Assembly (NCBI GenBank): GCA_023266575.1
Contig: JAHFPV010000019.1
Coordinates: forward strand, 1 to 56,658
Length of the DNA stretch: 56,658 nt
Source: Sphingobium sp.
GTDB taxonomy: Bacteria > Pseudomonadota > Alphaproteobacteria > Sphingomonadales > Sphingomonadaceae
Reading direction: 5' to 3'
In this document: positions 12,748 through 44,011 of the stretch, piece by piece
How the letters are laid out: the number at the start of each line of letters is the position of its first letter
How positions within the stretch are numbered: position 1 is the first letter of the stretch
Position numbers and translations under genes: made by a program
Notes under the pieces: generated by a model
Seen by the model: only the letters and a program-made list of their open reading frames with translations
Database searches by the model: none
What the model was told of the DNA's origin: nothing

Positions 12748-12853
12748 GATAGTCACTCGCTCACTCGCTATCCAGATAACGTCTCGCTGCGTTCCGCACT
12801 GGCGATGCGCGCACGCTGAGGCGATAGGCTGCGCCTGTCGCGGCCTCGCCATC
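12748..12853. other. Gene-free spacer before the first TetR-type box
   Basis: No gene, and no clear terminator with a T-run, is visible. The stretch is GC-rich with scattered direct repeats such as CACTCGCT. The promoter and operator for the dehydrogenase gene follow immediately. Confidence 0.4.
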
Positions 12854-12882
12854 TTGCCGAAAACTTCCTTTCCATCTATGCG
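12854..12882 (+). promoter_or_regulatory. Promoter for the first dehydrogenase (box A promoter)
   Basis: -35 TTGCCG (12854-12859), 17-base spacer, -10 TATGCG (12877-12882). The -10 is the left half of operator box A, an arrangement repeated at five other places in this locus. Confidence 0.6.
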
Positions 12883-12897
12883 ACTATGAATCGCATA
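12877..12897. promoter_or_regulatory. Operator box A (TATGCGA-N7-TCGCATA)
   Basis: Perfect 7-bp arms, TATGCGA at 12877-12883 and TCGCATA at 12891-12897, around CTATGAA. It lies 24 bases upstream of the dehydrogenase start. It is one of six such sites, probably bound by the TetR protein encoded at 16496-17158. Confidence 0.8.
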
Positions 12898-12921
12898 ACT
12901 GTAATGGAAGAGGAAGAGTGA

Positions 12922-13734
12922 ATGGGCATCCCCGACGTGAGCGGACGTTCCTTGTCCGACCTATATTCCCTGCGCGGCAGGAGCGCGGTCGTGACCGGCG
13001 CGGCCTGGGGATTGGGCAAAGCGACCGCACGCCGCTTGGCTGAAGCCGGGGCGTCGGTGCTGATCGCCGATATTGACGGCGAAGCGGCCACTGCCTGCGC
13101 GCAGGAACTGGACGCACAATTTGAGTCCCGCATCATCGCGGTCCAGATGGACGCGGGCGACCCATCCGCGATCAAGGCGACAGTGGACCTGGCCGTCCGC
13201 GAATTTGGCCAGATCGACATCTGGGTCAATAATGCCGGCATCCCCTCCTTCGTGCCTCTGCTCGACCTGGAGGATGCCGACTTCGACCAGGTGATCGCGA
13301 TCAATCTGAAGGGCGCTTTCATCGGCGCGCGGGAAGCGGCGCGATCCATGATCGGCGCTGAACGGCCCGGCGTGATCGTCAACGTCGCGTCGCTTGCCGG
13401 TGTCATGGGCATTTCGGCGGGGCAGGCGGCCTATTGCGCCTCCAAACATGGCGTCGTCGGCCTGACCCGGCAAATGTCGATCGAACTCGCGCCGCACGCT
13501 ATCCGCGTGCTGGGTGTTGCGCCGGGTTTCTCGGTGACGGAAAAGACGATGTTCCTGGCTGAACTGGACGAAGACGCGCTCAGCCAGATTCCCATCCCCG
13601 GCATCGGCGGCAGTCGGCTGGGCCGGGTTGGCGTGGCCGACGATATTGCCCGCGCCATCCTTTTCTGCGCGTCGGACATGGCCCTGTTCATGACCGGTAG
13701 CACGCTGTTGCTGGACGGCGGCATCGCGGCCTAG
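12922..13734 (+). CDS. Short-chain dehydrogenase/reductase
   Basis: 270-residue classical SDR. The NAD(P)-binding TGAAWGLG motif lies near residue 22, followed by the NNAG motif (VNNAGIP), catalytic Ser (VASLAG) and the YxxxK pair in AAYCASKHGV. An acidic residue after the second strand (IADIDG) suggests NAD rather than NADP. AGAGGAAGAG just upstream is a good ribosome site. Box A sits in its promoter, so it belongs to the TetR regulon with the P450 and hydrolases. Oxidation of a hydroxyl on an aglycone or released sugar is plausible. It is convergent with the second SDR. Confidence 0.92.
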   Translation: MGIPDVSGRSLSDLYSLRGRSAVVTGAAWGLGKATARRLAEAGASVLIADIDGEAATACAQELDAQFESRIIAVQMDAGDPSAIKATVDLAVREFGQIDIWVNNAGIPSFVPLLDLEDADFDQVIAINLKGAFIGAREAARSMIGAERPGVIVNVASLAGVMGISAGQAAYCASKHGVVGLTRQMSIELAPHAIRVLGVAPGFSVTEKTMFLAELDEDALSQIPIPGIGGSRLGRVGVADDIARAILFCASDMALFMTGSTLLLDGGIAA

Positions 13735-13781
13735 ATGTGAAGATGCAGGCGGTGTGACGACCGCCTGCATCGCGATCTGCC

Positions 13782-14534
13782 TCAGCCGATGAACATGCCC
13801 CCATTCACCGCCAGAACCTGTCCCGTCACATAGCTGGCGCCATCGGACGCCAGATATTCGCAGGCTGCGGCAATATCCTTCGGCGTTCCGGCGCGCGGGA
13901 TCGGGATATGCTGCGCGATGACTTCCAGCGGCGGGAAGGTGCCAGCGGCAATGCCCTGTTCGGCCATCGGCGTCGCCACGACCGAAGGAGGTATCGTGTT
14001 GACGGTAATGCCATGCGCCGCCAGTTCCCGCGCCAACGACCGCGTCAGGCCGATGACGCCGCTCTTGGCTGCGGCATAATGGGCGCGATCCATCGCGCCG
14101 GACTGCGCCGCCTGCGAGGATATGGTGATGATCCGGCCCCATTTGGCCGCCCGCATGTCGGGCAGGGCGGCCTGCACGGTGTGGAACACGCCTGTCAGGT
14201 TGATGTCGATCATCCGCTGCCAGATATCGACCGAAATATCGTCAAAGGCGATTCCTTCGGAAATGCCAGCATTGGCGATGACGATCGCGATCGGGCCAAG
14301 TTCCGCGCGGATCGCAGCATAGGCGGCATCGATGCTGGCGCGATCGGAAACGTCCACGGTCCGGGCCAATATGGTTGCCCCTTCCTCCCGCAAAGCGGCC
14401 GACTCGCGCAACAGCGCGGCGCGTTGCAGGTCAAGCATCGCGACCGGATGCCCCTTACGCGCGAACAACTGGCAAATGCCAAGGCCGATGCCCGATGCGC
14501 CGCCAGTCACGACCACGACTTTGTTGTTGGTCAT
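13782..14534 (-). CDS. Short-chain dehydrogenase/reductase (second)
   Basis: 250-residue classical SDR from the ATG at 14534; an upstream in-frame ATG is rejected because GGAGAGA inside that extension is the ribosome site for the chosen start. Motifs: TGGASGIG, IANAGIS, catalytic Ser in TISSQAA, and YAAAK. An aspartate after the second strand (MLDLQ) points to NAD. It lies 36 bases downstream of the P450 gene on the same strand, so the two probably share a transcript from the box B promoter, and it may oxidise the alcohol made by the P450. The exact substrate cannot be told. Confidence 0.92.
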   Translation of the reverse strand: MTNNKVVVVTGGASGIGLGICQLFARKGHPVAMLDLQRAALLRESAALREEGATILARTVDVSDRASIDAAYAAIRAELGPIAIVIANAGISEGIAFDDISVDIWQRMIDINLTGVFHTVQAALPDMRAAKWGRIITISSQAAQSGAMDRAHYAAAKSGVIGLTRSLARELAAHGITVNTIPPSVVATPMAEQGIAAGTFPPLEVIAQHIPIPRAGTPKDIAAACEYLASDGASYVTGQVLAVNGGMFIG

Positions 14535-14570
14535 ATCTCTCTCCATGTGCCTGAAAAATGCGACCCGGCG

Positions 14571-16133
14571 TCAGATGAGCGCAAGGTCGGCATCCACTGC
14601 GTCCAGCGCGTCATCGCTAAACTGTCCGGGGGCAAATTTCTGGACGGACCGCAACGTCATCCCCTTGGCCATCGCCAGCCGCTTGTCCTGGCTCATGCCG
14701 GGGAAATGGCGGTCGAGGATGGCCAGGCTGGAGGGGTTGGCCAGCAGGTCGCCAATCTTGGTCTTGGCGGTCGAAAAACCGCTGCGTTCGCCCTGCGGCA
14801 GGGCCGCGGGCTGAGCCGTGACCGACGCGGCCTTGTCGACCGTCAGGTCGACCCCCTGCGCTGGCGTCAGCTTGACGTGCAACTCCGACAAGCCACGAAT
14901 GATGAAGCTTGGCTCGAAATCGAGCGTGCGCTGCCCGCGTGGACCGTGCTTTTCCGCATCCAGGTCGATGTCGGACGTGTACGCCAGCATCTTTTCCAGG
15001 ATGATCCGCACTTCCACCCGCGCCAGCGGCGCACCGGCGCAGACATGCTTGCCCCGACCGAACGCCAGATGTTCCTTGATCTTTGGCCGATCGAGAACAA
15101 GATCGGTCGGATTCTCCCACCGTTGCGGATCGCGATTGGCCGCTGCGAGCGCGACCAATATCTTGGTTCCCGCCGGCACTGCCCGGTCACCGATCTTCGT
15201 GTCCCGGCGCGCCAGACGCGCGGTCTGCTTGGTCGATCCTTCCAGCCGCAGCACTTCTTCCAGAAATTGCGGGATCAGTGACGGATCGGCGCGCAGGCTG
15301 TCCTGCAGGCCCGGCTGATCGGTGATGTAGCGCATGGAATTGCCCAGCAGCTTGGCGCTGGTATCCTGCCCGGCACCGAACAGGAATGTCGCCATCTTGA
15401 CCAGCTCCAGCATGTCGGGTTCGCTGCCGTCCGGGAAGGTCGAATGGGCGAACTCGGTCAGGATGTCCTCCTGGGGGTTCTGGCGGCGATCCTGGATATA
15501 ATTGGCGAAATAGCCGCCCATCACGACCAGCGGATGGTTGGGCGAACTGAAATCATTTTCGCCCGACTCCAGGCTTCCGGGCGGCGGCGCGGCCTCGATC
15601 ACGTCCATGAACATCTGGCGATCGGCGGCGGGCACGCCCAGAAGGTCGGCGATCACCAGCGTCACGAACGGCGTCGCGACCTCCTGGATCAGCTCGCACC
15701 CGCCCTTGGCCGTGATCGTGCGGGCAATTTCGTCGGAATAGGACTGGATGAACGCCTCATTGGCTTTCAGCCGCGATGGCGTGAACAGCTTGTTGAGCAG
15801 CGATCGCATCCTTGTGTGGAGATCATCGTCATAATTGACCAGCAGGTCGCCGCCCAGAAACTCGTCGCGATGCGCCTCCACCTGCGCCGCAATGTCGGAC
15901 CCTTCAGGGGTGAAGGGCAGGGGGGCAGCCGCACCCTGCAAGCCGATGATCGCTGAGAAATCGGCATTATTCCTCAGCACTTCGAGCGTTTCGTCAAAGC
16001 CGGTGACGATCAGATAATCCTTGCCGGGCGGCTGGTAGATGGGGCCACGGGCGCGCACTGCCTCGAAAAAGGAATAGGGGTCCTTCAGGATTTCATAATC
16101 CGTGAAATAGTCGCGTTCTTCCAATGGCGTCAT
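14571..16133 (-). CDS. Cytochrome P450 with an extra C-terminal helical domain
   Basis: 520 residues, about 100 longer than typical bacterial P450s. The I-helix oxygen-binding motif AGQDTS is at 254-259, the K-helix EVLR at 293-296 and the heme loop FGRGKHVCAG has its ligand Cys365. The P450 fold ends near residue 425; a linker leads to a 65-residue domain (about 455-520) that aligns with the small secreted protein at 18109-18426. No signal peptide, so it is cytosolic. The ATG at 16133 with GGGAG upstream is preferred to the TTG at 16169. The promoter carries box B. The ferredoxin at 17280 is its likely electron donor. Hydroxylation of a terpenoid or steroid-like aglycone is inferred. Confidence 0.93.
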   Translation of the reverse strand: MTPLEERDYFTDYEILKDPYSFFEAVRARGPIYQPPGKDYLIVTGFDETLEVLRNNADFSAIIGLQGAAAPLPFTPEGSDIAAQVEAHRDEFLGGDLLVNYDDDLHTRMRSLLNKLFTPSRLKANEAFIQSYSDEIARTITAKGGCELIQEVATPFVTLVIADLLGVPAADRQMFMDVIEAAPPPGSLESGENDFSSPNHPLVVMGGYFANYIQDRRQNPQEDILTEFAHSTFPDGSEPDMLELVKMATFLFGAGQDTSAKLLGNSMRYITDQPGLQDSLRADPSLIPQFLEEVLRLEGSTKQTARLARRDTKIGDRAVPAGTKILVALAAANRDPQRWENPTDLVLDRPKIKEHLAFGRGKHVCAGAPLARVEVRIILEKMLAYTSDIDLDAEKHGPRGQRTLDFEPSFIIRGLSELHVKLTPAQGVDLTVDKAASVTAQPAALPQGERSGFSTAKTKIGDLLANPSSLAILDRHFPGMSQDKRLAMAKGMTLRSVQKFAPGQFSDDALDAVDADLALI

Positions 16134-16171
16134 GTGCCCACTCCCAGTTTCGACCGTCGATGCGATCAATC

Positions 16172-16192
16172 TATGCGATTTATAGTCGCATA
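16172..16192. promoter_or_regulatory. Operator box B (TATGCGA-N7-TCGCATA)
   Basis: Perfect arms at 16172-16178 and 16186-16192 around TTTATAG, 39 bases upstream of the P450 start. Preceded by CAATC, as are boxes C, D and E. Confidence 0.82.
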
Positions 16193-16216
16193 AACTGTCG
16201 CGCTCCCATGCGTCAA
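16187..16216 (-). promoter_or_regulatory. P450 operon promoter
   Basis: On the minus strand, -35 TTGACG (16216-16211), 18-base spacer, -10 TATGCG (16192-16187). The -10 coincides with one arm of box B. Confidence 0.62.
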
Positions 16217-16288
16217 GGCACGATACGAGGCGTCGCGGGGGCGATGGAGTAGGGATTGAAAGCTGTCGTCAGGACCGCGCTTGGCATC

Positions 16289-16317
16289 TTGACGGCGCAG
16301 GTGTGACAATCTATGCG
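16289..16317 (+). promoter_or_regulatory. Orphan rightward promoter (box C promoter)
   Basis: -35 TTGACG (16289-16294), 17-base spacer, -10 TATGCG (16312-16317) within box C. It matches the other five box promoters but points rightward, where no protein gene begins before 17280. No matching -35 is seen for leftward transcription. Confidence 0.55.
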
Positions 16318-16332
16318 ATACATTGTCGCTTA
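16312..16332. promoter_or_regulatory. Operator box C (TATGCGA-N7-TCGCTTA)
   Basis: Left arm TATGCGA at 16312-16318, right arm TCGCTTA at 16326-16332 (one mismatch), spacer TACATTG, preceded by CAATC. It lies 179 bases upstream of the P450 start, so it could also act as an auxiliary operator for that promoter. Confidence 0.72.
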
Positions 16333-16450
16333 GGTGATCCGGCCCGCGCCGTGACGCTCAGCACAAGCATTTCGATTGCGCGGTCCTCCCCAAGAGTACG
16401 TGCATGACTGCCGCGCGCCTTTGATGCTTTTCATCAAAGGCGCGCGGGCC
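16324..16450 (+). ncRNA. Candidate TetR-controlled small RNA
   Basis: Between the orphan box C promoter and the 16-bp hairpin at 16411-16447 lie about 125 bases with no convincing reading frame; the longest ATG frame before the hairpin is six codons. The stretch contains TCCTCCCC (about 16383-16391), an anti-Shine-Dalgarno-type sequence common in alphaproteobacterial small RNAs. Transcription would start near 16324 and stop at the hairpin before running into the 3' end of tetR on the other strand. A true U-tract after the hairpin is missing, which weakens the case. It might instead be a short untranslated antisense transcript. Confidence 0.35.
16411..16447. terminator. Strong hairpin between tetR and the box C transcript
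   Basis: Perfect 16-bp stem (16411-16426 with 16432-16447) closed by a CTTTT loop. It lies 48 bases beyond the tetR stop on the minus strand and about 90 bases past the box C start point on the plus strand, so it could stop both. Neither side has a clear run of Ts. Confidence 0.55.
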
Positions 16451-16495
16451 TTATCGGACCCTCGATAATGGACCTTAAGCTGAAGCGTTGAGCGA

Positions 16496-17158
16496 TTAGT
16501 CGCCCGCGCGCGGACGTCGCGGCGCGATCACCGCCGACTCCACCAGTTCGTGCATGATGTCGGCAACCGCCTCGGACGAATATTCGCCCTCGTCCTGCTT
16601 GAGCCACCAGGACAGGGTTTCGACGATCAAGGTGGTGCTGCAAATCACCGACAATTCTTGCGGCAGCCAAGTCGGATAATCGCTATATTCGGCCGCCAGC
16701 GCCATCGACAGCTGCATCAATTCTTCCCGCATCGCGCCGCCAGCCCCTCCGGTCAGCAGCGCGCGCCACAATATCCTGCGGGCGGCGACATAGTCGCACA
16801 GCGCCAGAAATCCCTTGTGGCTGTAGCCATGGGCAAAGGATATGGCGACCAGCCGGTCTATCTCATCCTGCGCTACATGGTTCAGCAAGGCTTCCTTGTC
16901 GGCATGATGGCGGAAAAAAGTGGCGTTATGGACCCCGGCCCTGGCGCATATCTCGCGCACGGTGATCTGGTCGAATGCCTTTTCCGTCAGCAGATCGAGC
17001 AGTGCCTGTCGCAACGCCGCGGCGCTGCGCACCTGTCTGGGGTCAGTGCCTCTTGACGCGCGCACCTCTGGCAATCTATGCGAATCAGTGTCGCTTATAT
17101 GGGCAGGCTTCACCACTGGCTGCGCTGACGATCCATGTTCCGTCTTTTCCTGTTTCAC
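16496..17158 (-). CDS. TetR-family regulator of the glycoside/P450 locus
   Basis: About 220 residues from a GTG at 17158 with AGGAG seven bases upstream. The helix-turn-helix is clear (FDQITVREICARAGVHNATFFRHHADKEALLNHV), followed by a helical ligand domain. The start is uncertain: ATG 17179 and GTG 17065 are alternatives, and the first 30 codons use AGA, ATA and TTG freely, unlike the rest, so the shorter form (189 residues) is possible. With the longer form, box D lies inside the coding sequence. It is the only TetR gene in the window and sits in the middle of the six boxes, so it is the natural candidate to bind them, with a pathway intermediate as inducer. Confidence 0.87.
   Translation of the reverse strand: MKQEKTEHGSSAQPVVKPAHISDTDSHRLPEVRASRGTDPRQVRSAAALRQALLDLLTEKAFDQITVREICARAGVHNATFFRHHADKEALLNHVAQDEIDRLVAISFAHGYSHKGFLALCDYVAARRILWRALLTGGAGGAMREELMQLSMALAAEYSDYPTWLPQELSVICSTTLIVETLSWWLKQDEGEYSSEAVADIMHELVESAVIAPRRPRAGD
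17053..17082 (+). promoter_or_regulatory. Ferredoxin promoter (box D promoter)
   Basis: -35 TTGACG (17053-17058), 18-base spacer, -10 TATGCG (17077-17082) within box D. The predicted start near 17090 would give a long leader of about 190 bases to the ferredoxin. Confidence 0.55.
17077..17097. promoter_or_regulatory. Operator box D (TATGCGA-N7-TCGCTTA)
   Basis: Arms at 17077-17083 and 17091-17097 (one mismatch) around ATCAGTG, preceded by CAATC. It overlaps the 5' part of tetR and the rightward ferredoxin promoter, so one bound repressor could silence the ferredoxin and hinder tetR transcription. Confidence 0.75.
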
Positions 17159-17279
17159 CACACCACTCCTGCCTCCCATTTTGAAGAAGCAGCTTGCGCC
17201 GTCCGTCAACGAAAAAATGCGTGTGGCACGATCGGCAGCAGCGTCAGCCGCCACCAGAACCATAATAGAAGAGCAAATC

Positions 17280-17597
17280 ATGCCTGAAATCCTGGTAACC
17301 GATCGCGCCGGTCAACAGACCGCGGTGGAAGCAACGACGGACCGGACGCTGATGGAGATCATCCGCGACGCCGGTTTTGATGATATGGTCGCACTATGCG
17401 GGGGATGCTGCGCCTGCGCGACCTGCCATATCCATGTCGACCCGGCTTTTGCAGACAGTCTGCCGCCTATTAGCGCAGACGAAAACGACCTGCTCGATAC
17501 CTCGCCGCATCGCACCGCCGGGTCGCGCCTGGCCTGCCAACTGTCCTTTACGGAGGCCATGAATGGGCTGCGGGTCGCAATCGCGGCAGAAGATTGA
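17280..17597 (+). CDS. [2Fe-2S] ferredoxin, putidaredoxin/adrenodoxin type
   Basis: 105 residues. Cluster ligands C40, C46 and C49 lie in the CGGCCACATC motif, with the fourth at C86 in RLACQL; C43 and C44 are extra. Ferredoxins of this class pass electrons from an FAD reductase to bacterial P450s. The start is the ATG at 17280 with a weak AGAAGAG site; the open frame further upstream has no ferredoxin-like sequence. It is driven by box D and so co-regulated with the P450. No ferredoxin reductase gene is present in the window, so the reductase must be encoded elsewhere. Confidence 0.92.
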   Translation: MPEILVTDRAGQQTAVEATTDRTLMEIIRDAGFDDMVALCGGCCACATCHIHVDPAFADSLPPISADENDLLDTSPHRTAGSRLACQLSFTEAMNGLRVAIAAED

Positions 17598-17612
17598 TGA
17601 TTTTCGGACCGA

Positions 17613-18074
17613 TCAGCCTATCCTGAAATCGCGGAGCATCTGGGCGCACAAGCGGATCTGGTCGGGTTCATACTGCGCCCAGCGCTCATGCAGCATGGCG
17701 GCCATCGCCGCGCGCACCTCATCGCAGATCGCAGCGCCAGCCGCGCTCAGCGTCAGTTCGGTCCGCCGCTGGTCCGTCGCGCTCTTGCGCGCAACCAGCA
17801 GTTGCGCCTTTTCCAGACGACCAAGCTCGGCCGTCACCAGGCTGCGTCCGATGTTCAACATCGTCGCGATATCCAGCGGGTGCAGGCAGCCATTGGATAT
17901 CATCAACAATATCCATGTGCCCCGCGGCCCCAGGTCATGACGCCTGTTGATATGATCCGTCAGGGATCGAAACGGTCGGGATGCGAAGGCCATGCCTTCA
18001 TAGATCATCCCGATCTCGTTCCAGTCCAGTTCTGCGCTTGTCCGACCCTGCGTCATGGCCATGGTCTGGCGCAC
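17613..18074 (-). CDS. MarR-family transcriptional regulator
   Basis: 153 residues. The winged helix-turn-helix is recognisable in HPLDIATMLNIGRSLVTAELGRLEKAQLLVARKSATDQRRTELTLSAAG, including the D-x-R wing signature. The start is uncertain among a GTG at 18074 and ATGs at 18062 and 18056. It lies about 35 bases downstream of the small secreted protein gene on the same strand and probably shares its transcript, with the TTCAA-N3-TTGAA palindrome at 18513-18525 as its likely operator. It lies inside the plant-glycoside locus, but none of the six TetR boxes is near it. Confidence 0.88.
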   Translation of the reverse strand: MRQTMAMTQGRTSAELDWNEIGMIYEGMAFASRPFRSLTDHINRRHDLGPRGTWILLMISNGCLHPLDIATMLNIGRSLVTAELGRLEKAQLLVARKSATDQRRTELTLSAAGAAICDEVRAAMAAMLHERWAQYEPDQIRLCAQMLRDFRIG

Positions 18075-18108
18075 AGACCCCCCAATCGCAAGGGCCGGAC
18101 GGCCAGGA

Positions 18109-18426
18109 TCACTTGGTCGCGGGCAGCTTGGCCAGATCGGTCTGGATCGCGGCCAGCGCCTTGTCCGTCACCGTGTCCGGCGCATATTGCTGGACCGACT
18201 TGAGCGTCATGCCGCGCGCCATGCCGATATTCTCATTGGCGGTAAAGCCGGGCAGATGCTTGTCGACGACCGCCTTGGCCGCAGGATCGTCGAGCAAGGT
18301 GCCGATGTCGGTCGCTTCGACATTATAGGCTGCCGCCGCCGCTGGCGCGGCCGTCTGGGCGTAACTCCCCGTCGCGGAAACCGACGCTGCCATCAGCAGC
18401 GCGGAAGCGATGAAAATGCGTTTCAT
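18109..18426 (-). CDS. Small secreted helical-domain protein
   Basis: 105 residues with a clean signal peptide (IFIASALLMAASVSATGSYAQ, cut near AQT). The mature domain of about 65 residues aligns with the C-terminus of the P450 at 14571-16133: both share IG-x-LL, a D-x-H-x-PG core, MA-x-GMTL-x-SVQ and a closing AL-x-A-x4-DLA, about 45% identical by eye. In my recollection the same domain occurs in sphingomonad and Caulobacter proteins fused to secreted hydrolases. No function is known to me. It is probably periplasmic and co-transcribed with the MarR gene. Confidence 0.8.
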   Translation of the reverse strand: MKRIFIASALLMAASVSATGSYAQTAAPAAAAAYNVEATDIGTLLDDPAAKAVVDKHLPGFTANENIGMARGMTLKSVQQYAPDTVTDKALAAIQTDLAKLPATK

Positions 18427-18512
18427 AACAGGCCTTTCAGTGTTTCAGGGTGAGGCTGTTGCCTTCTGCGCGCCAGCCTAATCATCGCCGCCATTACGAT
18501 CAAGATATTTAA

Positions 18513-18525
18513 TTCAAAAGTTGAA
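18513..18525. promoter_or_regulatory. Candidate MarR operator
   Basis: Inverted repeat TTCAA-AAG-TTGAA in an AT-rich patch, 87 bases upstream of the small secreted protein gene and its downstream MarR gene. MarR proteins often bind palindromes of this form. The rest of the 18427-18559 spacer shows nothing further. Confidence 0.45.
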
Positions 18526-18559
18526 CTAATAACCATGTCCACATGTGTCCGGCTCAGTG

Positions 18560-20101
18560 TCAGCCTTTAAGTTCCAGCAGCGCGACCCCTTCGGGCGGTA
18601 GGCGCAACTGGAGCTTGCGGTCCTTGCTCAGCCGCAGCGTTTCAGGCGGCGCGATGTCCGCCCGTTTGCGCAGCAGCGCCAGCTGATCGGGCTTGGGATA
18701 TTGCGGCGATCCCATTTCGCGCCAGGCGGGCATCGGCGATCCGCGTTCCTGATCGACATAGCGGACAGCGACGTTCTGCCCCGCCCGCGCGCCGATCATG
18801 TCGATGATCAGCGTCTTGGCCTCGCCCCGCACTGTTCGGGTATGGCTCAATCCCGGTATGCCCGACGGCTGCGTTGCCTCGGCCAGGTTCCACACCAACG
18901 CGGCGATCGTCCCATTGTCCCGGCGCGACGCCAGCGCCGGACCGCTGCTCTCCAGCCGCTGCGTCCCCAATGCGCTCAGCAGCTTGTGGGTATTGAAGGA
19001 AGGCTTGGCGATCCCGGCGGAGATCATCCCCCAACCGCTATCGCCTTCCTTCAATATATAGTCGGCAATGCCCAATTCTTCATATTCGCAGCTCATCACC
19101 CATGGCGACATGGCCTGGCAATAGGGCAGCGATTCCTTGACGACATGGGCGATCATCGCCGGGCTGTCCGACGACCATTCGGTGATCCACAGCGGCTTGC
19201 CCGCAAATGTGCTGGCGTCGATCTGCTCGCGCGCCTGCTTGATGGCGCGGGGGATCACGTCATTCTGCGACGTCCGCGCTGTCCCCTTGCCAAACAGCTT
19301 GTCCTGCGAGTCCCCGGCATAGACATGGGTGGTGAAGAAATCGACCGGGGTGTTGGTCTCCGCGCAATAGGCGGCGAAATCGGCGATCCACTCGACCGAT
19401 GCGGTCGATGGACCACCCACCTGGATCTGCGCGTCCACGGCTTTGATCGCCAGCGCAGTCGCCCGGTAAAATTCGAAATATTGCTGCTTCGTGCCGGTCC
19501 AGAACACGCTCAGATTCGGCTCGTTCCACACCTCGAACGGCCATTGCCGCACCTCGGCGATGCCATAGCGCTCGACCAGATGCACGACGAAGGCGGTGAT
19601 GAACTGCGCCCAGGCCTCGTTCGACTTGGGCGGGGTGATGACCCCGCCGTAAAAGAAGAAACTCGTCGTCCCCGACGCCAGCCCCTTGGGCATGAAGGAT
19701 AATTCGACAAAGGGCTTCACCTTGCGCGCCAGCAGCCCGTCATAGACCTGGTCGACCCGCTGGAAATTGGGCGTCGGCCGCATCCGGTTGAGGATGGTCG
19801 GCGTCATCACCGACATTTCATCCGCGAAGATGCCATGGAAGCGCACCCGCTGCGTCCCGACCTCATCGGTCCAGCGTTTGAGATCGTTGCGCCATGGCTC
19901 CCGCAGGGTGATGGCCGCCCGGTCCGATCCGACACATTCCGTCCAGATGTGCGGCAAAGGGCCAGTGGATGTGCGCGTGTCGATCGTGACAGGCACGATC
20001 TCCTCATTCGCCCTCGCGGTTCCGGCATAAGCCGCGCCGATCGCCGCCAGTGACCCCGCGCCCAGCAGCGTGCGGCGGCTCATGCCATCCTCGTTCATCC
20101 C
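18560..20101 (-). CDS. Glycoside hydrolase family 39 (beta-xylosidase type)
   Basis: 513 residues with a twin-arginine-like signal (MSRRTLLGAGSLAAIGAA, cleavage after ARA). The TIM barrel shows the acid/base Glu in FEVWNEPNL and the nucleophile Glu in LWITEWSSD, the two glutamates of GH39; a C-terminal beta-sandwich follows. GH39 enzymes include beta-xylosidases and iduronidases. The ATG at 20101 with AAGAGGA at good spacing is preferred to upstream options. It lies 10 bases after the GH2 gene, so the two are co-transcribed. It probably removes a terminal xylose or similar sugar from a plant glycoside in the periplasm. Confidence 0.9.
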   Translation of the reverse strand, partial: GMNEDGMSRRTLLGAGSLAAIGAAYAGTARANEEIVPVTIDTRTSTGPLPHIWTECVGSDRAAITLREPWRNDLKRWTDEVGTQRVRFHGIFADEMSVMTPTILNRMRPTPNFQRVDQVYDGLLARKVKPFVELSFMPKGLASGTTSFFFYGGVITPPKSNEAWAQFITAFVVHLVERYGIAEVRQWPFEVWNEPNLSVFWTGTKQQYFEFYRATALAIKAVDAQIQVGGPSTASVEWIADFAAYCAETNTPVDFFTTHVYAGDSQDKLFGKGTARTSQNDVIPRAIKQAREQIDASTFAGKPLWITEWSSDSPAMIAHVVKESLPYCQAMSPWVMSCEYEELGIADYILKEGDSGWGMISAGIAKPSFNTHKLLSALGTQRLESSGPALASRRDNGTIAALVWNLAEATQPSGIPGLSHTRTVRGEAKTLIIDMIGARAGQNVAVRYVDQERGSPMPAWREMGSPQYPKPDQLALLRKRADIAPPETLRLSKDRKLQLRLPPEGVALLELKG

Positions 20102-20111
20102 GTCATTCCTC

Positions 20112-22781
20112 TTATCTGGGCGTGACCGCAATCGCCGCGACGACCGCACGGCCGCCTTCGCCCGCGAAATCCAGTTTCAGCACGCCGTCGGTCACACGGA
20201 CATGGAACTGCTTGCGCAGCCCGCGCAGCGCGCCACCGGCTTCCTTGCTGACATCGAACGGGGCCAGCGCCACCTTGCCATTGGCATTCACCCGCATCCT
20301 GACCGGCTCGGTCAGCGCGTTGCGCGGCTCGAACGTGTCGAGCGTGACGGTCCAGCGCCCATTGGCCACCGGTATGGCGTAGGAAAAAGCATCGCCTTCC
20401 CGCCAATAATCGTAGAGCGCGGGAACAGCCGCCTCCACCGTGCGCGGCGCCATCATCCGCCGGCCGCCAAAGCCGCCCATGTTCAGCACGACGGGGATTC
20501 CCCCGGTCACGAAATCGTCGGAGCCATAACGCTGCCCGGCAATGACGCTGCTGCCCAGATCGCCTGAGTTGACGAAAATGCCCCTTGCCGGGTCTGGCCC
20601 GTTCCAGTCCGCCTCGTCACTGATCTGCGCGCCGTTAAATTCGGCGGACGCGACGATCCTGTTGTCGCCGGGGCGCAGGATGACATGCGGCCACAGACAG
20701 ATGCCGTCGGTGCAGAACGCGGTGCCGACCGGGCTGCCGTTCAACGTCAGCTCGGCTTTCGCGGCATTGCTATACGCCTTGACCGTAACATCGCGATAGG
20801 CACGCTCGGTATAGCGCTTCTGGGTCAGGTGCAGCGTCGGTTTGGACGACCATTGCGCCTTGAAGAAATAGAAGGCATCCTTGCGCTCCTTCCGGTCCGC
20901 CGTCACCAGCCCCTTATTGTTGATGTCGATGGAATCGCCTTCCTTGCGAAGGTCGCTGGCAAAATCGAACATGTTCCAGACCCAGCTGGCAAAGACGAAC
21001 GGGCGCTGCCTGATCGCGGCCCAATTTTCCTCATGATACCAGCTTTGATACTCCTCCGGGTGCGGGGAGCCGGTGAAGTTGAGATAGCCGTCCGCGACAT
21101 TGTCCGAATGCTGGCTGGTCGCACCGCCCGCCCCATATTCGGACAGCGATATTGGCAGCTTTGGGTGCTTGGCGTGCAATATGTCCAGCTGCCCGCCCAA
21201 TTGCTCGCGCGCCTCGCGCGGCTGGGGATAATACCAGCCATAATAGCGATTATAGCCGATCAGGTCCGCCGTCCCCGCCAGCTTTTCGCCCGCCGTCTTG
21301 ACCGGGCTCAGACCCTCGCAACAGTCGGCGAATATTGTCGGGCGGAACGGATCCTCGGCCTTGGCGATCACATTCAAATGTTGCAGCAGCGCCAGCGGCT
21401 TCATCGGCTCCTGGCCGACGCCAAAGCCCTTGGCGGAATCCACTTCATTGCCGATCGACCACATCATGACCGAAGGATGATTATATTTCTGGCGGATCAG
21501 CTCGCGCAATTGCTGTTCGGCATTGGCCCATAGTTCGGGCGATCCCTGCCCCCCGGTGACGCTGGGCGATGTGACATAGGGCAGCTCCGCCCACACGACC
21601 ATGCCCGCGCGATCGGCTTCGTCGCTCCATTCGTCGGCCTGTTGATAATGGGCCTCGCGGATCGTGTTCGCGCCCATGTCGACGGCTATCGCCATGTCCT
21701 GCGCATGGTCCGCCCTGGTCAAGGCCCAGCCCACATCGGGCCGGTCCTGGTGCCGGGACACGCCATGCAGCGCTACATGCTTGCCGTTCAGGAAAAAGCC
21801 CTTGTCCGGGTTGACACGGAAATCGCGAATGCCCAGCGGCTGGACCACGCTGTCGATAGGCCGTCCCTTGTCGACCAGTTCGGCGCGCACGGAATAGAGA
21901 TAGGGATCGGCGGTTCCGTTCCACACATGGGGCGATGGCACCACCATGTCGATGGCTTGCTCACTCGCACCCTTGGCGATCCTGACCGGCCTTTCCGAAC
22001 GGGCGACCGCTTTGCTGTCGGCATCCGCGATCGTCGTCACCAGCGTCAATCGTCGATTGGCAGCGGTCGCACTACGCAATCGCGCCAGCACATGAACCGT
22101 CGCCTTGTCCGCAGTGATCGTGCTGGTGCGGGCATAAAGGCCGGGGCCGCCAAAATCGAGCGGATCGAAACTGACATCGGGCAGGGTCAGCAGCGACACC
22201 GCGCGATACATGCCGCCATGGACGAAAAAATCTCCGGCCAGCGGCAAAGTCTCCGCCGTGCTGGCCCCCGCCACCGGCTTGCTGTTATCGGCACGGACGG
22301 CGATCAGATTGTCGGCACCCGGCTTCCATTCCTGCGTCACATCCAGCCGAAAGCGGGCGAACGCCCCCTTATGCGTGCCGACATGCACGCCATTCACCCA
22401 GATGTCGGCAATCTTGCTGACTGCGCCGAAATCCAGATAATAGCGTTGCGGCCCGGTTCCCGCCGACGGCGCGCGCATCGTCAGCCGATACCAGCCAATG
22501 CCCTGCCGGTTGTCGGTGCCGGGCGCGCGCTCCGTGCCATAGCTGCCCAGCCGGTTCCAGCTGTGGGGCACCGACACGCTGTCCCAACCGCTATCGTCGA
22601 AGCCGGGCGCAGCGGGCGCATCGCCTGTCTCGCCAAACCGGAATCGCCAGCCCGACCCAAGGGTCATCGACTGGCGACCGGCGGTTTCCGTTTGCGCCAT
22701 ATCCGCTGGTGGCAAACCGGCTTGCGCAGCCATCGGTGCAGCCAGAGCCAGCAGGCTCGCCACGGTCAGATACAGCTTCAT
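20112..22781 (-). CDS. Glycoside hydrolase family 2 (beta-galactosidase type)
   Basis: 889 residues from the ATG at 22781 (GAGGG five bases upstream), with a signal peptide (LYLTVASLLALAAPMAAQA). Order of domains: sugar-binding jelly roll (GIGWYRLTM, DIWVNGVHVGTHKG), Ig-like domain, TIM barrel with acid/base Glu in SIGNEVD and nucleophile Glu in LSEYGAGG, and a C-terminal malectin-like module (VTLDTFEPRNALTEPVRMRV). GH2 covers beta-galactosidases, beta-glucuronidases and beta-mannosidases; galactosidase fits best by eye, but specificity is not decided. A 14-bp palindrome upstream suggests extra control besides read-through from the TonB receptor gene. Confidence 0.93.
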   Translation of the reverse strand: MKLYLTVASLLALAAPMAAQAGLPPADMAQTETAGRQSMTLGSGWRFRFGETGDAPAAPGFDDSGWDSVSVPHSWNRLGSYGTERAPGTDNRQGIGWYRLTMRAPSAGTGPQRYYLDFGAVSKIADIWVNGVHVGTHKGAFARFRLDVTQEWKPGADNLIAVRADNSKPVAGASTAETLPLAGDFFVHGGMYRAVSLLTLPDVSFDPLDFGGPGLYARTSTITADKATVHVLARLRSATAANRRLTLVTTIADADSKAVARSERPVRIAKGASEQAIDMVVPSPHVWNGTADPYLYSVRAELVDKGRPIDSVVQPLGIRDFRVNPDKGFFLNGKHVALHGVSRHQDRPDVGWALTRADHAQDMAIAVDMGANTIREAHYQQADEWSDEADRAGMVVWAELPYVTSPSVTGGQGSPELWANAEQQLRELIRQKYNHPSVMMWSIGNEVDSAKGFGVGQEPMKPLALLQHLNVIAKAEDPFRPTIFADCCEGLSPVKTAGEKLAGTADLIGYNRYYGWYYPQPREAREQLGGQLDILHAKHPKLPISLSEYGAGGATSQHSDNVADGYLNFTGSPHPEEYQSWYHEENWAAIRQRPFVFASWVWNMFDFASDLRKEGDSIDINNKGLVTADRKERKDAFYFFKAQWSSKPTLHLTQKRYTERAYRDVTVKAYSNAAKAELTLNGSPVGTAFCTDGICLWPHVILRPGDNRIVASAEFNGAQISDEADWNGPDPARGIFVNSGDLGSSVIAGQRYGSDDFVTGGIPVVLNMGGFGGRRMMAPRTVEAAVPALYDYWREGDAFSYAIPVANGRWTVTLDTFEPRNALTEPVRMRVNANGKVALAPFDVSKEAGGALRGLRKQFHVRVTDGVLKLDFAGEGGRAVVAAIAVTPR

Positions 22782-22827
22782 CGACACCCTCAATCCTGTT
22801 GCAGTCCTTGCCTATAATGTGATGCAG

Positions 22828-22841
22828 GCAAACCGGTTTGC
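22828..22841. promoter_or_regulatory. LacI-type palindrome upstream of the GH2 gene
   Basis: GCAAACCGGTTTGC is a perfect 14-bp palindrome with the central CG typical of LacI-family operators. It lies 47 bases upstream of the GH2 start and is enclosed by a longer inverted pair, TGCAGGCA (22823-22830) and TGCCTGCA (22862-22869). A second short palindrome, TTGTC-G-GACAA, sits at 22846-22856. No LacI gene is present in the window. Confidence 0.45.
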
Positions 22842-22912
22842 TGTCTTGTCGGACAAACGGCTGCCTGCACCACTATCGCTACTGCGATGCTGTCCGGGTG
22901 CGTCAAGGCCGC

Positions 22913-25351
22913 TTATCGTGACCCGAAGGCAAAGCGCAGATTGACGCCAAACTCCTGCGGCGCCGTCAACGACCCGCCGGTATAGCTGCTGGTGGCCGAA
23001 GCACCCGTCGGTCCGGTCAGAACCGGTGCGCCATTGGCAAACTGCCCAGCAAAGCCAAGCTGCTGGTAGGAGGTGAACAACGGGTTGGTCCGCGAAATCA
23101 CCCGCGTCGTATTCAAGACATTCTTGGCAAAGAAGGACATTTCCCACATCCCGTCATGGCCACGAACCCCGGCATAGAGGTTCAGCAGGCCATAGGAGCT
23201 GACATTGTCGAACGGGTTGGTCGGATCGCCCTGTGACTTGCCATTATAGGAAAACAGCCCGCGCACATAGCCATCCGTCGCGCTCGAAACCGGGATGCGA
23301 TATTCCGACTGGATCGACGCGCTGAACGGCGGCAGGAAGGCCGACCGGTCGTTGGATCGGCAGGTGGACAGATTGTTGGCACCGACCGCGGCCTGCAACG
23401 CGGCCAGGCTGGGCGTGCCGGTCGTGACATCGGGAATGCCGTCGCCATTAATGTCGTTGCACGCAACCACGCCATTCTTGATCTTGCCCAGCGAATAGCT
23501 GGCCGCGAGGCCTACATTCAGGCGGCTGCCGATCGCGGCCTGAAGATCGGCCTCGATGCCATTGACCTCGACCGGCACGGGGGACACGAAGTTGAACTGG
23601 CCTACTTGCTGGCTCAACCCTGTCACCGCGCCCGAAGCGTTGGTCACCGCCACGGTGTTGACATAGAAAATGCCGGTCGGGGACCTGTAGGGGAAATTCT
23701 GGAATTTCTGATGATAGGCGGTCAGGTTGAATTGCGCGCGGCCGCCAAACAAATTGCTCTTGAAACCCAGTTCGTAGGATTTGGAGCTTTCAGGCGGCAC
23801 GGTCACGAAGGATCGTTCCAGCGCCGACGATGCCAGATTGAAATTGCCGATCGCCGTCAGGCCCGGCCGCCAGGAACTGCCGGTGCTGGCATAGACCATG
23901 AAGTCGGGCGTGAAATTATGCTTGACCGATGCAGCATAGATCAGCTTGCCTTCGTCCCGGTCCTGCGCATCGACGACCCGGCCGTTGACACTGAAACCGC
24001 CGACAAAGCTGTAGTCGATCCGCCGTAACCCGCCTGAAACCTCGGTATTCTTGCCGATATGGGCGGTCAGATTGCCGAAAAAGGACTGTTCATGTTCCTT
24101 GGTCGGTCGGACGATCGGAGTGTTGACGATCTGGGCAACGCCGCCACCAAATGCCAGCGGCAGGCGCACCACCGTCGGCGTCGTCAGATTGGTCTGCGAG
24201 CTATTCTTGTAATCAAAGGCACCAATGACATAATCGAGGAAGCCGAACAGCCGTTCTTCATTCTGCAAACGGACTTCATGAGATGTCGATTTGGCGCGGG
24301 TGTTGGCGACCTGGTCGACGATCCGGCCGGGAAAGAAGATCGCGTCGTCGGCATTATCGCGCGAAAACAGGTTTTGGGTATAATGCTGGCCTTGATAGAC
24401 CAGGCGTTGCCCCATTTGTGCGGCTTCGGCCTGCCAGTTGTAGATATTGAACCGCTGGCGGACCGGACGGGGCCGTTGCTGCAATGACAGGCGGTCCTCG
24501 GCGGTGATCAGGACCGGGCTGGGCGTGGCGGCCGGATTGGCCTCGCTGAACGAAATCGCCTGATCATAGCTGATCGCGTTGCGCTTGATATATTGATATG
24601 TGCCTTCAAACCGCAGCCAGTCGAGCGGCGTCGCCAGCGCCGACAGACGCCCGCTGGTCGTGGTTGAACGCGGATCGGGATTGTTGGCGGCGCGCACCCG
24701 GTCGCCCTCATTCTCGTCCCACACGCCTGCGGCGCGCAGGCCGAATATGCCCTCGATCACCGGGACATTGACGGCCCCTTTCGCATTCATCGTGCCGATG
24801 CAGTTCGCGGTCAGATCGACAAAACCGCCATATTGGAACAGGTCCGGCTTTTTGGAGGTAACCGTGATCGACCCGGACGGCGCGGCGCGTCCGCGCAGCG
24901 TCCCCTGCGGACCACGCTGGACCTCGATCTGGCCGATGTCATACATTTGCTGCAAAATGACGCCCGCCGTAATCGGCGCGTCGTTGAAGTAAAATTCGAC
25001 CGTCGGATTATTGCCGCTGGCATTCAGGTCGAAATTGACCCCGCGCAGCTTCGCGTTCGCGCCGATGCCATTGGCGTTGGAGGACAGTTCCAGGCCGGGG
25101 ACGAGCGATTGCACATCGCTGAAGCTGCGCAGATTGAGCTTGTCGATCTGTGCCGAGGTCACGGCGTTGACGACGGCAGGAACGTCTTGCAGCCCTTCAT
25201 CGCGACGACGGGCCTGAACAATGATGTCCGCCATGGATGTCTGGGACGCGCTGCTGCTGTCGTCCGTTGGGACGGTTTGCGCCCATAGTGGCGCACTGAT
25301 CAGCATCGCACTCAAACTGACGCCGCGACGCAGGACTTGCATGGCTTTCAT
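22913..25351 (-). CDS. TonB-dependent outer-membrane receptor
   Basis: 812 residues. Signal peptide (GVSLSAMLISAPLWAQ), then the plug domain (IIVQARRRDEGLQDVPAVV, LVPGLELSSN, IEVQRGPQGTLRGRAAPSG) and a 22-strand-type barrel ending FAFGSR with terminal alternating residues. GGAGGGG eight bases before the ATG is a strong ribosome site. A lone pair of barrel cysteines is seen around the DINGDG loop, which could be disulfide-linked or bind calcium. It heads the leftward TonB-GH2-GH39 unit under box E. It most likely imports a bulky glycoside for the adjacent hydrolases. Confidence 0.95.
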   Translation of the reverse strand: MKAMQVLRRGVSLSAMLISAPLWAQTVPTDDSSSASQTSMADIIVQARRRDEGLQDVPAVVNAVTSAQIDKLNLRSFSDVQSLVPGLELSSNANGIGANAKLRGVNFDLNASGNNPTVEFYFNDAPITAGVILQQMYDIGQIEVQRGPQGTLRGRAAPSGSITVTSKKPDLFQYGGFVDLTANCIGTMNAKGAVNVPVIEGIFGLRAAGVWDENEGDRVRAANNPDPRSTTTSGRLSALATPLDWLRFEGTYQYIKRNAISYDQAISFSEANPAATPSPVLITAEDRLSLQQRPRPVRQRFNIYNWQAEAAQMGQRLVYQGQHYTQNLFSRDNADDAIFFPGRIVDQVANTRAKSTSHEVRLQNEERLFGFLDYVIGAFDYKNSSQTNLTTPTVVRLPLAFGGGVAQIVNTPIVRPTKEHEQSFFGNLTAHIGKNTEVSGGLRRIDYSFVGGFSVNGRVVDAQDRDEGKLIYAASVKHNFTPDFMVYASTGSSWRPGLTAIGNFNLASSALERSFVTVPPESSKSYELGFKSNLFGGRAQFNLTAYHQKFQNFPYRSPTGIFYVNTVAVTNASGAVTGLSQQVGQFNFVSPVPVEVNGIEADLQAAIGSRLNVGLAASYSLGKIKNGVVACNDINGDGIPDVTTGTPSLAALQAAVGANNLSTCRSNDRSAFLPPFSASIQSEYRIPVSSATDGYVRGLFSYNGKSQGDPTNPFDNVSSYGLLNLYAGVRGHDGMWEMSFFAKNVLNTTRVISRTNPLFTSYQQLGFAGQFANGAPVLTGPTGASATSSYTGGSLTAPQEFGVNLRFAFGSR

Positions 25352-25448
25352 GGAACAATCCCCTCCGATTTCGACGAGCTATTGCCGCTCGTTTCCTGTG
25401 ATTTCCTGCATCGACCGACTCAAACAGGCTCTTGTCCCGCCCTCAATC

Positions 25449-25469
25449 TATGCGACTATATATCGCATA
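25449..25469. promoter_or_regulatory. Operator box E (TATGCGA-N7-TCGCATA)
   Basis: Perfect arms at 25449-25455 and 25463-25469 around CTATATA, 98 bases upstream of the TonB receptor start, preceded by CAATC. Confidence 0.82.
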
Positions 25470-25493
25470 AGTCGTCGCCGTTGCGCTTGTCAA
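25464..25493 (-). promoter_or_regulatory. TonB receptor promoter
   Basis: On the minus strand, a consensus -35 TTGACA (25493-25488), 18-base spacer and -10 TATGCG (25469-25464) within box E. Confidence 0.65.
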
Positions 25494-25522
25494 GCGGCCC
25501 GGTCCCTGCGGGCGTGACCGGC

Positions 25523-25552
25523 TTGACCAAAGCCGAAATAACCGCCTATGCG
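25523..25552 (+). promoter_or_regulatory. GH106 promoter
   Basis: -35 TTGACC (25523-25528), 18-base spacer, -10 TATGCG (25547-25552) within box F. The two promoters of this divergent region are back to back and each carries its own box. Confidence 0.65.
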
Positions 25553-25567
25553 ATACATGATCGCATA
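25547..25567. promoter_or_regulatory. Operator box F (TATGCGA-N7-TCGCATA)
   Basis: Perfect arms at 25547-25553 and 25561-25567 around TACATGA, 80 bases upstream of the GH106 start. Its centre is 98 bases from that of box E, which could allow looping between the two. Confidence 0.82.
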
Positions 25568-25647
25568 AATCGCGCATAACGTAGAATATGTCCAACTCAC
25601 TGTCGGGAATGACGGCGGCGCTATGGAACAAGCCAAGGAGAGGCTGG

Positions 25648-31827: not shown

Positions 31828-31920
31828 GACGGTTGCTCCATCTCCATAGCCGCCGCTGGCTCAGTCTTTGCGGCAAGGTTATGGTGCGGTGGAATTGGGA
31901 TGCTGCCAAATATCGGCTGC

Positions 31921-31948: not shown

Positions 31949-31988
31949 GATAATCGTGCAGGATCATCCCCTTGCACTGCCCGCATCT

Positions 31989-39956: not shown

Positions 39957-39957
39957 G

Positions 39958-43998: not shown

Positions 43999-44011
43999 CG
44001 CTACCACCCAC

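What the first reader, a model, noticed from the sequence alone, without database searches (positions are those of the whole stretch)
12854..25567. Six-site TetR-type regulon with boxes placed on the -10 elements
Seen directly: TATGCGA-N7-TCGC(A/T)TA occurs at 12877, 16312, 16172, 17077, 25449 and 25547. In every case TATGCG is the -10 of a promoter whose -35 is TTGACG, TTGACA, TTGACC or TTGCCG, 17 or 18 bases upstream on the matching strand. Targets are two dehydrogenases (one through the P450 operon), P450, ferredoxin, TonB receptor (with GH2, GH39) and GH106. The one TetR gene lies in the middle. Placement of the operator on the -10 with fixed spacing implies direct occlusion and coordinated induction by one ligand. 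The identity of the binding protein is inferred.
Basis: partly seen in the sequence, partly recalled or inferred. Interest (0 to 1): 0.82.

Follow-up and report, generated by a model that had tools for sequence, protein, structure and literature searches.

The report
Repressor regulon for plant-glycoside breakdown genes
A bacterium, a sphingomonad to judge by its relatives, appears to switch on a whole set of genes for taking up and breaking down a sugar-decorated, probably plant-made compound by releasing one repressor protein from six matching DNA sites, one of which sits inside the repressor's own gene and one of which seems to control a small RNA.

Summary
The six boxes are real, at the stated coordinates, and are the only exact copies in the 3.62-Mb genome. 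All six have a -35-like hexamer 17-18 bp upstream of TATGCG; chance for five of six reaching 5/6 matches is 2e-9 to 1e-7. Of 38 boxes in ten loci, 32 keep a -35 at 17-18 bp. The neighbouring MarR fails this test: a six-box genome (G372) lacks it. Two things were missed. Box 17077 lies inside the tetR reading frame, and this embedded site is kept in frame in seven loci. Box 16312 has no gene; in four loci it precedes a conserved hairpin with a CCUYCCC loop plus a terminator, a candidate small RNA. Repressor sites on -10 elements in a sphingomonad catabolic cluster have a precedent (EdcR, PMC8700777). Best reading: TetR repressor regulon for a rhamnosylated plant glycoside with a hydrophobic aglycone. 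Binding, ligand, transcription starts and the RNA are untested.

The parts
12877..12897 (+). Box A, operator on the promoter of SDR1 (TTGCCG-17-TATGCG)
   Evidence: orthologous SDR1 has a box with -35 in pKN1, G372, G393, and a box without a clear -35 in G172 and RL4
12922..13734 (+). SDR1, short-chain dehydrogenase
   Evidence: Pfam adh_short 7.3e-56
13782..14546 (-). SDR2, short-chain dehydrogenase, second gene of the P450 operon
   Evidence: Pfam adh_short_C2 5.3e-60
14571..16133 (-). Cytochrome P450, closest solved structure CYP150A6, with an extra C-terminal domain
   Evidence: Pfam p450 5.8e-25; 6dcd 2.5e-116; extra domain
16172..16192 (-). Box B, operator on the P450-SDR2 promoter (TTGACG-18-TATGCG)
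   Evidence: a box stands directly before P450 also in pKN1, G372, G393, G387, N. chloroacetimidivorans, G172
16312..16332 (+). Box C, operator on a promoter (TTGACG-17-TATGCG) with no protein gene; candidate small-RNA promoter
16324..16452 (+). Candidate small RNA (both ends inferred): hairpin 16377-16404 with CCUCCCC in its loop region, then terminator hairpin
16411..16447 (+). Terminator-type hairpin, 16 bp perfect stem; followed by TTTTTTT on this strand in pKN1, G372, G393, but only by a short T stretch here
16496..17158 (-). TetR-family regulator (GTG start inferred from the annotated start of the pKN1 orthologue)
   Evidence: Pfam TetR_N 2.5e-9, 37.2 bits against cut-off 24; all-helical TetR fold predicted, pLDDT 85.4
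17077..17097 (+). Box D, operator on the ferredoxin promoter, inside the tetR reading frame (encodes part of HISDTDSH on the other strand)
17280..17597 (+). [2Fe-2S] ferredoxin
   Evidence: NCBIfam fdx_isc 2.3e-12, below the curated cut-off; no Pfam match at 1e-3
18560..20098 (-). GH39, beta-xylosidase-like
   Evidence: Pfam 5e-85; solved beta-xylosidases
20112..22781 (-). GH2, beta-galactosidase/beta-glucuronidase-like
   Evidence: (below curated cut-offs)
22913..25351 (-). TonB-dependent receptor, first gene of the TonB-GH2-GH39 unit
   Evidence: Pfam 1e-27
25449..25469 (-). Box E, operator on the TonB receptor promoter (TTGACA-18-TATGCG)
   Evidence: conserved in pKN1, G372, G393
25547..25567 (+). 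Box F, operator on the GH106 promoter (TTGACC-18-TATGCG)
   Evidence: conserved in pKN1, G372, G393, RL4
25588..28965 (+). GH106 alpha-L-rhamnosidase
   Evidence: Pfam Glyco_hydro_106 1.1e-265; 6q2f 4.4e-249

Best explanation
The TetR-family protein encoded at 16496-17158 is a local repressor. As a dimer it binds a palindrome of about 27 bp (ATC-TATGCGA-N7-TCGCATA-GAT) whose upstream half is also the -10 element of six promoters. When bound it keeps RNA polymerase off. A small ligand, probably the glycoside, its aglycone or an early oxidation product, releases it, and the TonB receptor, three glycoside hydrolases (GH106, GH2, GH39), P450, its ferredoxin and two short-chain dehydrogenases are induced together, for uptake, removal of sugars and oxidation of a hydrophobic, probably terpenoid- or steroid-like aglycone. 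Box D lies in the 5' part of tetR, so the ferredoxin promoter faces the tetR promoter; this may add autorepression by road-block and, after induction, interference with tetR transcription. Box C drives an RNA of about 130 nt with an anti-Shine-Dalgarno-like loop and its own terminator. Shown here: sites, spacing, conservation, co-occurrence with TetR, conserved RNA hairpins. Inferred: binding, repression, ligand, substrate, transcription and function of the RNA, interference at tetR.
For: Exact boxes only in this cluster of the genome. -35 spacing far beyond chance. 38 boxes (<=2 mismatches) in ten loci; 32 have a -35 of at least 4/6 at 17 bp (6) or 18 bp (26), 31 of at least 5/6. Same targets under the box after rearrangement: P450 or its operon with ferredoxin in 10 of 10 of these loci; GH106 also in pKN1, G372, G393, RL4; TonB also in pKN1, G372, G393. 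Two more genomes of the genus, G372 and G393, have six exact boxes each, all in the cluster, and one single-mismatch place each elsewhere. The half site on the -35 side is stricter (third base T in 29 of 32) than its mirror position (A in 24, T in 7 of 32), as expected if it doubles as a -10. The recognition helix reads V(H/N)xxTFFRH in the aligned TetRs of box-bearing clusters and xGYxTxFRHY in 6 of 8 more distant relatives near which no box was seen. Box D is kept in frame inside tetR in seven loci. MarR is excluded by G372. Precedent: the EdcR palindrome overlaps the -10 in four promoters of a sphingomonad catabolic cluster (PMC8700777, section 3.1 read; the sites there were predicted, the repression shown by genetics).
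Against: No binding or expression data. TATGCG is a weak -10 by the E. coli rule. Six of the 38 boxes lack a -35 at 17/18 bp. Of 13 sets of sequence laid out (one, G298ext, skipped as a repeat), G288 and G387a carry a related TetR (49% and 58%) with no box at <=2 mismatches in the 40 kb held; the G387a protein has the same recognition helix (VHNATFFRHH). Most loci were found through TetR, so TetR's presence in them is not independent evidence; the independent test is. pKN1 and G393 are near-identical and count as one lineage. The regulator also resembles DhaS, an activator, so repression is argued from position, not homology. Substrate and ligand rest on enzyme families only.
Confidence: 0.86

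Rival explanations
1. The boxes are bound by the neighbouring MarR-family protein (17613-18074) rather than TetR.
For: It lies in the same cluster and is conserved in pKN1 and G393 (68-69%).
Against: G372 has all six boxes in the same places and no MarR match at 1e-5 in the whole genome; G215, G031 and G298 also have none; G172, G387 and the RL4 plasmid have only distant matches (36-42%), away from the cluster.
Confidence: 0.03
2. TetR binds the boxes but acts as an activator or dual regulator, like DhaS.
For: Best sequence-family and fold neighbours include DhaS.
Against: The site covers the -10 in 32 of 38 cases, a position that blocks polymerase; the -35 elements are good (TTGAC in most), not poor as at many activated promoters (last point from general knowledge).
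Confidence: 0.06
3. Box C is an auxiliary operator for the P450 promoter (looping or cooperative binding) and there is no small RNA.
For: It lies 133-141 bp from box B in four loci (coordinates); in pKN1 and G393 the -35 is not at 17/18 bp from TATGCG; in the window the terminator's T run is poor; no transcript is known.
Against: Window and G372 have TTGACG at 17/18 bp pointing away from P450; pKN1 and G393 have TTGACG 18 bp before TATGAG in the box centre (contexts); the sequence in that direction keeps two hairpins with three pairs changed on both sides, and in three of four loci a T run on that strand only. The spacings 133, 133, 140, 141 differ by about 0.7 helical turn, which looping at this range would not favour.
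Confidence: 0.25
4. The boxes are a chance palindrome or a dispersed repeat without regulatory role.
For: None found.
Against: Shuffle and genome controls, variable 7-bp centre, conservation at different genes.
Confidence: 0.01

Closest known systems
EdcR of Caenibius tardaugens (TetR-type repressor of estradiol degradation; PMC8700777, section 3.1 and passages read)
   Same: TetR-type gene inside a sphingomonad catabolic cluster; one palindrome at several promoters (Pa, Pb, weaker at Pr, Pt) overlapping the -10; repression and effector shown there by genetics and reporters.
   Different: Different palindrome (TnnCnnTACnAnTnGTAnnGnnA); two operons plus edcR and edcT; in the parts read no glycoside hydrolases, no operator inside the repressor frame and no small RNA are mentioned. 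Pfam TetR_C_11, reported for EdcR, is not found in this TetR at 1e-3.
Steroidal-saponin degradation genes of Sphingobium sp. RC1 (PMC10653915; outline with abstract, sections on gene selection and distribution, and passages read)
   Same: Sphingomonad; GH106 and GH39 enzymes with predicted signal peptides acting on saponins; oxidation of the aglycone.
   Different: GH3 and GH78 with them, no GH2 among the six; the words P450 and TetR do not occur in the main text as held; no regulator described in the parts read.
CYP150A6 (PDB 6dcd)
   Same: Closest solved structure to the P450 (E 2.5e-116, residues 2-425).
   Different: This P450 has a C-terminal extension, shared with a small protein of the same cluster.
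Alphaproteobacterial small RNAs with anti-Shine-Dalgarno loops (recalled as a class; only search listings seen)
   Same: C-rich loop complementary to ribosome-binding sites, intrinsic terminator.
   Different: No Rfam match at gathering score; controlled by a catabolic TetR box.

Membership tests
TetR family regulators | N-terminal TetR_N helix-turn-helix above the curated cut-off | tested here: met
   37.2 bits, cut-off 24
TetR family regulators | All-helical fold with a C-terminal ligand/dimer domain | tested here: met
   Nine helices, pLDDT 85.4; the 50 PDB matches shown are TetR-type regulators as far as their titles tell (DhaS, EthR, EthR2, FadR, KstR and others), TM by query 0.41-0.60
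TetR family regulators | Binding to a palindromic operator, released by ligand | not testable with these tools
   Comparative footprint only
EdcR-type regulator | EdcR operator consensus | tested here: not met
   Box consensus from 32 sites is ATC-TATGCGA-N7-TCGCATA-GAT, unlike the printed EdcR consensus
EdcR-type regulator | TetR_C_11 (PF16859) domain | tested here: not met
   Only TetR_N found at 1e-3
EdcR-type regulator | Operator overlapping the -10 at several promoters of one catabolic cluster | tested here: met
   Six of six in the window by sequence; transcription starts not mapped
EdcR-type regulator | Protein homology to EdcR | not tested
   No EdcR sequence at hand
Known small-RNA families | Rfam match | tested here: not met
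   0 matches at gathering score in window 12000-26500
Anti-Shine-Dalgarno small RNA | Loop with CCUYCCC, stable stem, intrinsic terminator, own promoter | tested here: inconclusive
   Loop and stems conserved in four loci (two near-identical), T run in three of four and poor in the window; no transcript known
Saponin catabolic clusters | Activity on saponins | not testable with these tools
   Enzyme families only

The most novel reading that the evidence does not exclude
The regulon has a built-in RNA arm: the sixth operator controls a small RNA with an anti-Shine-Dalgarno loop that is induced together with the glycoside enzymes and represses translation of other mRNAs (for instance of competing pathways, or of the regulon itself as feedback), while the operator embedded in the tetR frame makes the induced ferredoxin transcript run against tetR, giving a switch-like response. 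The RNA arm has been kept in at least three lineages of one genus and the embedded operator in several genera.
Probability: 0.4. Interest if true: 0.68.

Novelty: new variant of a known kind. Interest (0 to 1): 0.52.

Why it matters
It defines a compact repressor/operator set for a plant-glycoside catabolic cluster found on a plasmid and in several other sphingomonad genomes, with operators of about 27 bp that can be tested at once and a probable sensor for a plant glycoside or its aglycone. The operator that doubles as repressor coding sequence and the operator-controlled small RNA would, if confirmed, show how a catabolic repressor can couple enzyme induction with control of its own gene and with translation elsewhere.

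Tried and rejected
MarR as binding protein: rejected. Wider regulon elsewhere in the genome: no exact box, and 2-mismatch places no more frequent than the control. Base-pair targets of the candidate RNA: RNAduplex (no accessibility term) against 36 translation starts of the window gave no sensible ranking; the regulon genes were not favoured. A second model match in the own genome (C14:21748, model R2) lacks the CCUCCC loop and looks like an ordinary terminator after a gene. Weak RNA-model matches in G311, G363, G337, G315 and G407, G333, G389, G403 were not taken as relatives. Rfam: nothing. A blastn search of plasmids with the 196-bp RNA region found nothing, not even pKN1, so that search was too insensitive to count. 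The nhmmer part failed on file format; its blastn part ran. Whether EdcR and this TetR are close relatives was not tested. The TetR alignment holds 18 sequences: 11 of the 23 matches (12 left out, among them those with stops inside), the four loci new counted with L033, L065 and L066. A published description of this regulon was not found in searches of the held library (open-licence papers only).
Full report
The observation. A pattern search finds TATGCGA-N7-TCGC(A/T)TA exactly at 12877, 16172, 16312, 17077, 25449 and 25547. With up to two mismatches there are 12 strand-hits, all at these six places; shuffled windows give 0.64 on average and at most 4 in 100. The window is the whole of contig C3 of a 3.62-Mb assembly. 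In that assembly the six exact sites are alone: every other place listed needs two mismatches, and the total is no higher than for the reversed control pattern (12/14 against 13/15). A hexamer with at least five TTGACA matches at 17 or 18 bp on either strand is found at 1.3% of window positions and 2.8% of 1080 intergenic positions; five of six boxes have one, p about 2e-9 or 1e-7. Four matches, as at box A, are common (11.6% of positions). A weak point is that TATGCG matches the E. coli -10 only in TAT; a strict consensus scan does not list these promoters and lists instead a promoter-like pair at 16281-16310 beside box C.

The genes. Pfam and NCBIfam name two short-chain dehydrogenases, a P450, a TetR regulator, a [2Fe-2S] ferredoxin (weak match), a MarR-like protein, GH39, GH2, a TonB receptor and GH106. 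By sequence the closest solved structures are CYP150A6 for the P450, beta-xylosidases for GH39, beta-galactosidases and beta-glucuronidases for GH2 and 6q2f for GH106. Box A faces SDR1, box B the P450-SDR2 operon, box D the ferredoxin, box E the TonB-GH2-GH39 unit and box F GH106. Distances from the box edge to the start codon are 45, 59, 203, 118 and 41 bases. Box C (16312) faces no protein gene.

Who binds. TetR relatives were sought in 298 genomes of the family (16 with a match at 1e-10), in 94 genomes of the same genus (4 with a match at 1e-40, own genome included), in two other genera (1 of 5 and 1 of 14), in named genomes (2 loci, one of them a short Streptomyces match) and in plasmids (2 records). 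The closer loci were laid out with the window's proteins and scanned for boxes (13 sets, one of them, G298ext, skipped because it repeats the N. chloroacetimidivorans locus). Novosphingobium sp. RL4 has boxes before ferredoxin-P450 and before GH106-GH39, one between SDR1 and SDR2 and one in tetR, the last two without a good -35. N. chloroacetimidivorans has boxes before P450 and before SDR2. G215, G031, G172 and G387 have boxes before P450 or its operon with ferredoxin, and some of the others. G288 and one of two G387 loci have a related TetR but no box at two mismatches or fewer. In the ten loci with boxes there are 38; 32 have a -35 of at least four matches at 17 bp (6) or 18 bp (26), 31 of at least five. 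pKN1 and G393 are almost identical and should be counted once. That the window is from a sphingomonad is inferred from these relatives.

The test that does not start from TetR is: among 298 genomes, four have an exact box. Besides the own genome, G215 has it inside a tetR homologue with TTGACG 18 bp upstream, and the two others have a single site without a -35 above three matches (contexts, read by eye). Whole-genome scans of G372 and G393 put six exact boxes each in the cluster; outside it each has one place with one mismatch. The MarR-like neighbour is not needed: G372 has six boxes and no MarR match at 1e-5, and G215, G031 and G298 also have none. The aligned TetRs from box-bearing clusters share V(H/N)xxTFFRH at the recognition helix; of eight more distant relatives, of which only about 3.5 kb each was scanned, six read xGYxTxFRHY. 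Against this, the box-less G387a protein has the V(H/N) type too. The consensus from 32 promoter-oriented boxes is ATC-TATGCGA-N7-TCGCATA-GAT, the outer triplets being weaker; the half nearer the -35 is the stricter one (third base T 29 of 32; mirror position A 24, T 7), as expected when it also serves as -10 (the boxes were selected with a symmetric pattern, so only the difference between halves counts). The predicted TetR structure has nine helices and the PDB matches shown are TetR-type proteins, at modest TM scores.

Box D inside tetR. The pKN1 tetR is annotated from a GTG 61 bases before its box; the window has a GTG at the same distance (17158). On that reading the box is coding sequence. 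In seven loci (window, pKN1, G372, G393, G215, G031, RL4) it is kept in the same frame and encodes (I/L/K)-(S/C)-D-(T/A)-x-(S/A)-H in the otherwise variable, low-confidence N-terminal arm; in RL4 its -35 is lost. The ferredoxin promoter of the window therefore lies within tetR and points against it (in G215 and G031 the embedded promoter serves other units of the same set). A shared TTGACGGACGG stretch upstream of tetR in window and pKN1 may be its own promoter (inferred). Occupancy of box D would repress the divergent unit and could road-block tetR; after induction the divergent transcript would run over the tetR start. These consequences are inferred.

Box C and a candidate small RNA. Between tetR's end and the P450 promoter the four genus-level loci keep, besides the boxes, one block of about 60-80 bases. 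Read from box C it is a hairpin UGCGYG...CGYGCA enclosing CCUYCCCAA, then ACUGC and a strong GC hairpin that is followed by TTTTTTT in pKN1, G372 and G393, on this strand only; in the window the stem is 16 bp and perfect but the T run is poor. The consensus fold has 21 pairs, three of them with changes on both sides in at least one sequence, and two cells that break or lack a pair (four sequences, two of them identical here). Each fold is far more stable than its shuffles (z -5.1 to -7.5). The promoter is TTGACG-17 in the window and TTGACG-18 in G372; in pKN1 and G393 TTGACG lies 18 bp before TATGAG in the middle of the box (contexts). A covariance model of the four sequences, run over 94 genomes of the genus with strict filters, has matches at 0.01 in 8: strong ones in G000, G372 and G393, which are training loci; two weaker, loop-bearing ones in G387, one 436 bases after a box in its P450 cluster and one just after a gene elsewhere; and weak ones in four other genomes that I do not count. 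No Rfam family matches. Target prediction was uninformative. I take a box-controlled RNA as likely and its function as open.

What it is for. GH106, GH2 and GH39 imply rhamnose, galactose or glucuronate, and xylose-type sugars; the P450, ferredoxin and dehydrogenases imply a hydrophobic aglycone. Sphingobium RC1 uses GH106 and GH39 enzymes, among others, on steroidal saponins (PMC10653915, passages and two sections read). In a megablast search of plasmids with the cluster, the only record besides pKN1 that matches the GH39 stretch is from Sphingobium sp. TomTYG65, an isolate named in that paper, where the gene lies near one annotated 3-beta hydroxysteroid dehydrogenase. The core set of TetR, P450 and dehydrogenases, with or without ferredoxin, occurs in other genera without a match to the three hydrolases in the 20-60 kb held (other hydrolase families were not sought), so the sensor probably answers to the aglycone or an early product rather than to a sugar. 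This is inference.

Known or new. Placing a TetR operator over the -10 in several promoters of one sphingomonad catabolic cluster is known from EdcR (PMC8700777, section 3.1 read). This TetR has a different operator and lacks the C-terminal Pfam domain reported for EdcR. I found no description of this regulon in the searches of the held library. The regulon itself is a well-supported new member; the embedded operator and the possible RNA arm make it a variant.

Noticed in passing
window 14574-14800 and 18112-18426: The last ~75 residues of the P450 and a small protein with a signal-peptide-like start are the same domain (42% identical); the small protein has no Pfam or NCBIfam match at 1e-3. 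The P450s of G215 and G031 stop before it, at 430 and 429 residues; in G215 the domain is a separate gene under the box in tetR.
   Followed up: partly
window 35220-54649: Purine-degradation-like set: permease of the xanthine/uracil type, xanthine-dehydrogenase-type subunits and XdhC, amidohydrolase, adenosine deaminase, polysaccharide-deacetylase-type protein, class V aminotransferase, M20 peptidase; pathway name recalled.
   Followed up: no
window 30481-35131: Dicarboxylate symporter next to a Cache-domain histidine kinase and a sigma-54 response regulator, like DctA-DctB-DctD (families; name recalled).
   Followed up: no
L077 (G387) 15310-15362: Two box-like palindromes in tandem: the box at 15318 is followed at once by AATGCGATTATAAATCGCGTT.
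   Followed up: no
L107 1501-1595 (G387 contig 31): A hairpin-type element with CCUCCC plus a terminator with seven T, similar to the candidate RNA, directly after the stop codon of a protein gene; the only box listed on that contig (one mismatch) is 59 kb away.
   Followed up: partly
L065 about 20030-20050 (pKN1) and the same place in G393: A second, degenerate box-like palindrome inside tetR next to box D (AAGCGACTCACGATCGCG).
   Followed up: no
L035 13819-13839 (G215): A third, weaker box (TGTGCGACACTGTGTCGCTGA) about 200 bases before the TonB receptor, without a TTGAC-type hexamer at the usual distance; it is not among the 38 boxes.
   Followed up: partly
G172:C1:1524081 (L048): G172 has several TetR relatives; a one-mismatch box lies about 3 kb from another of them (1520796), which could be a related site or chance.
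   Followed up: no
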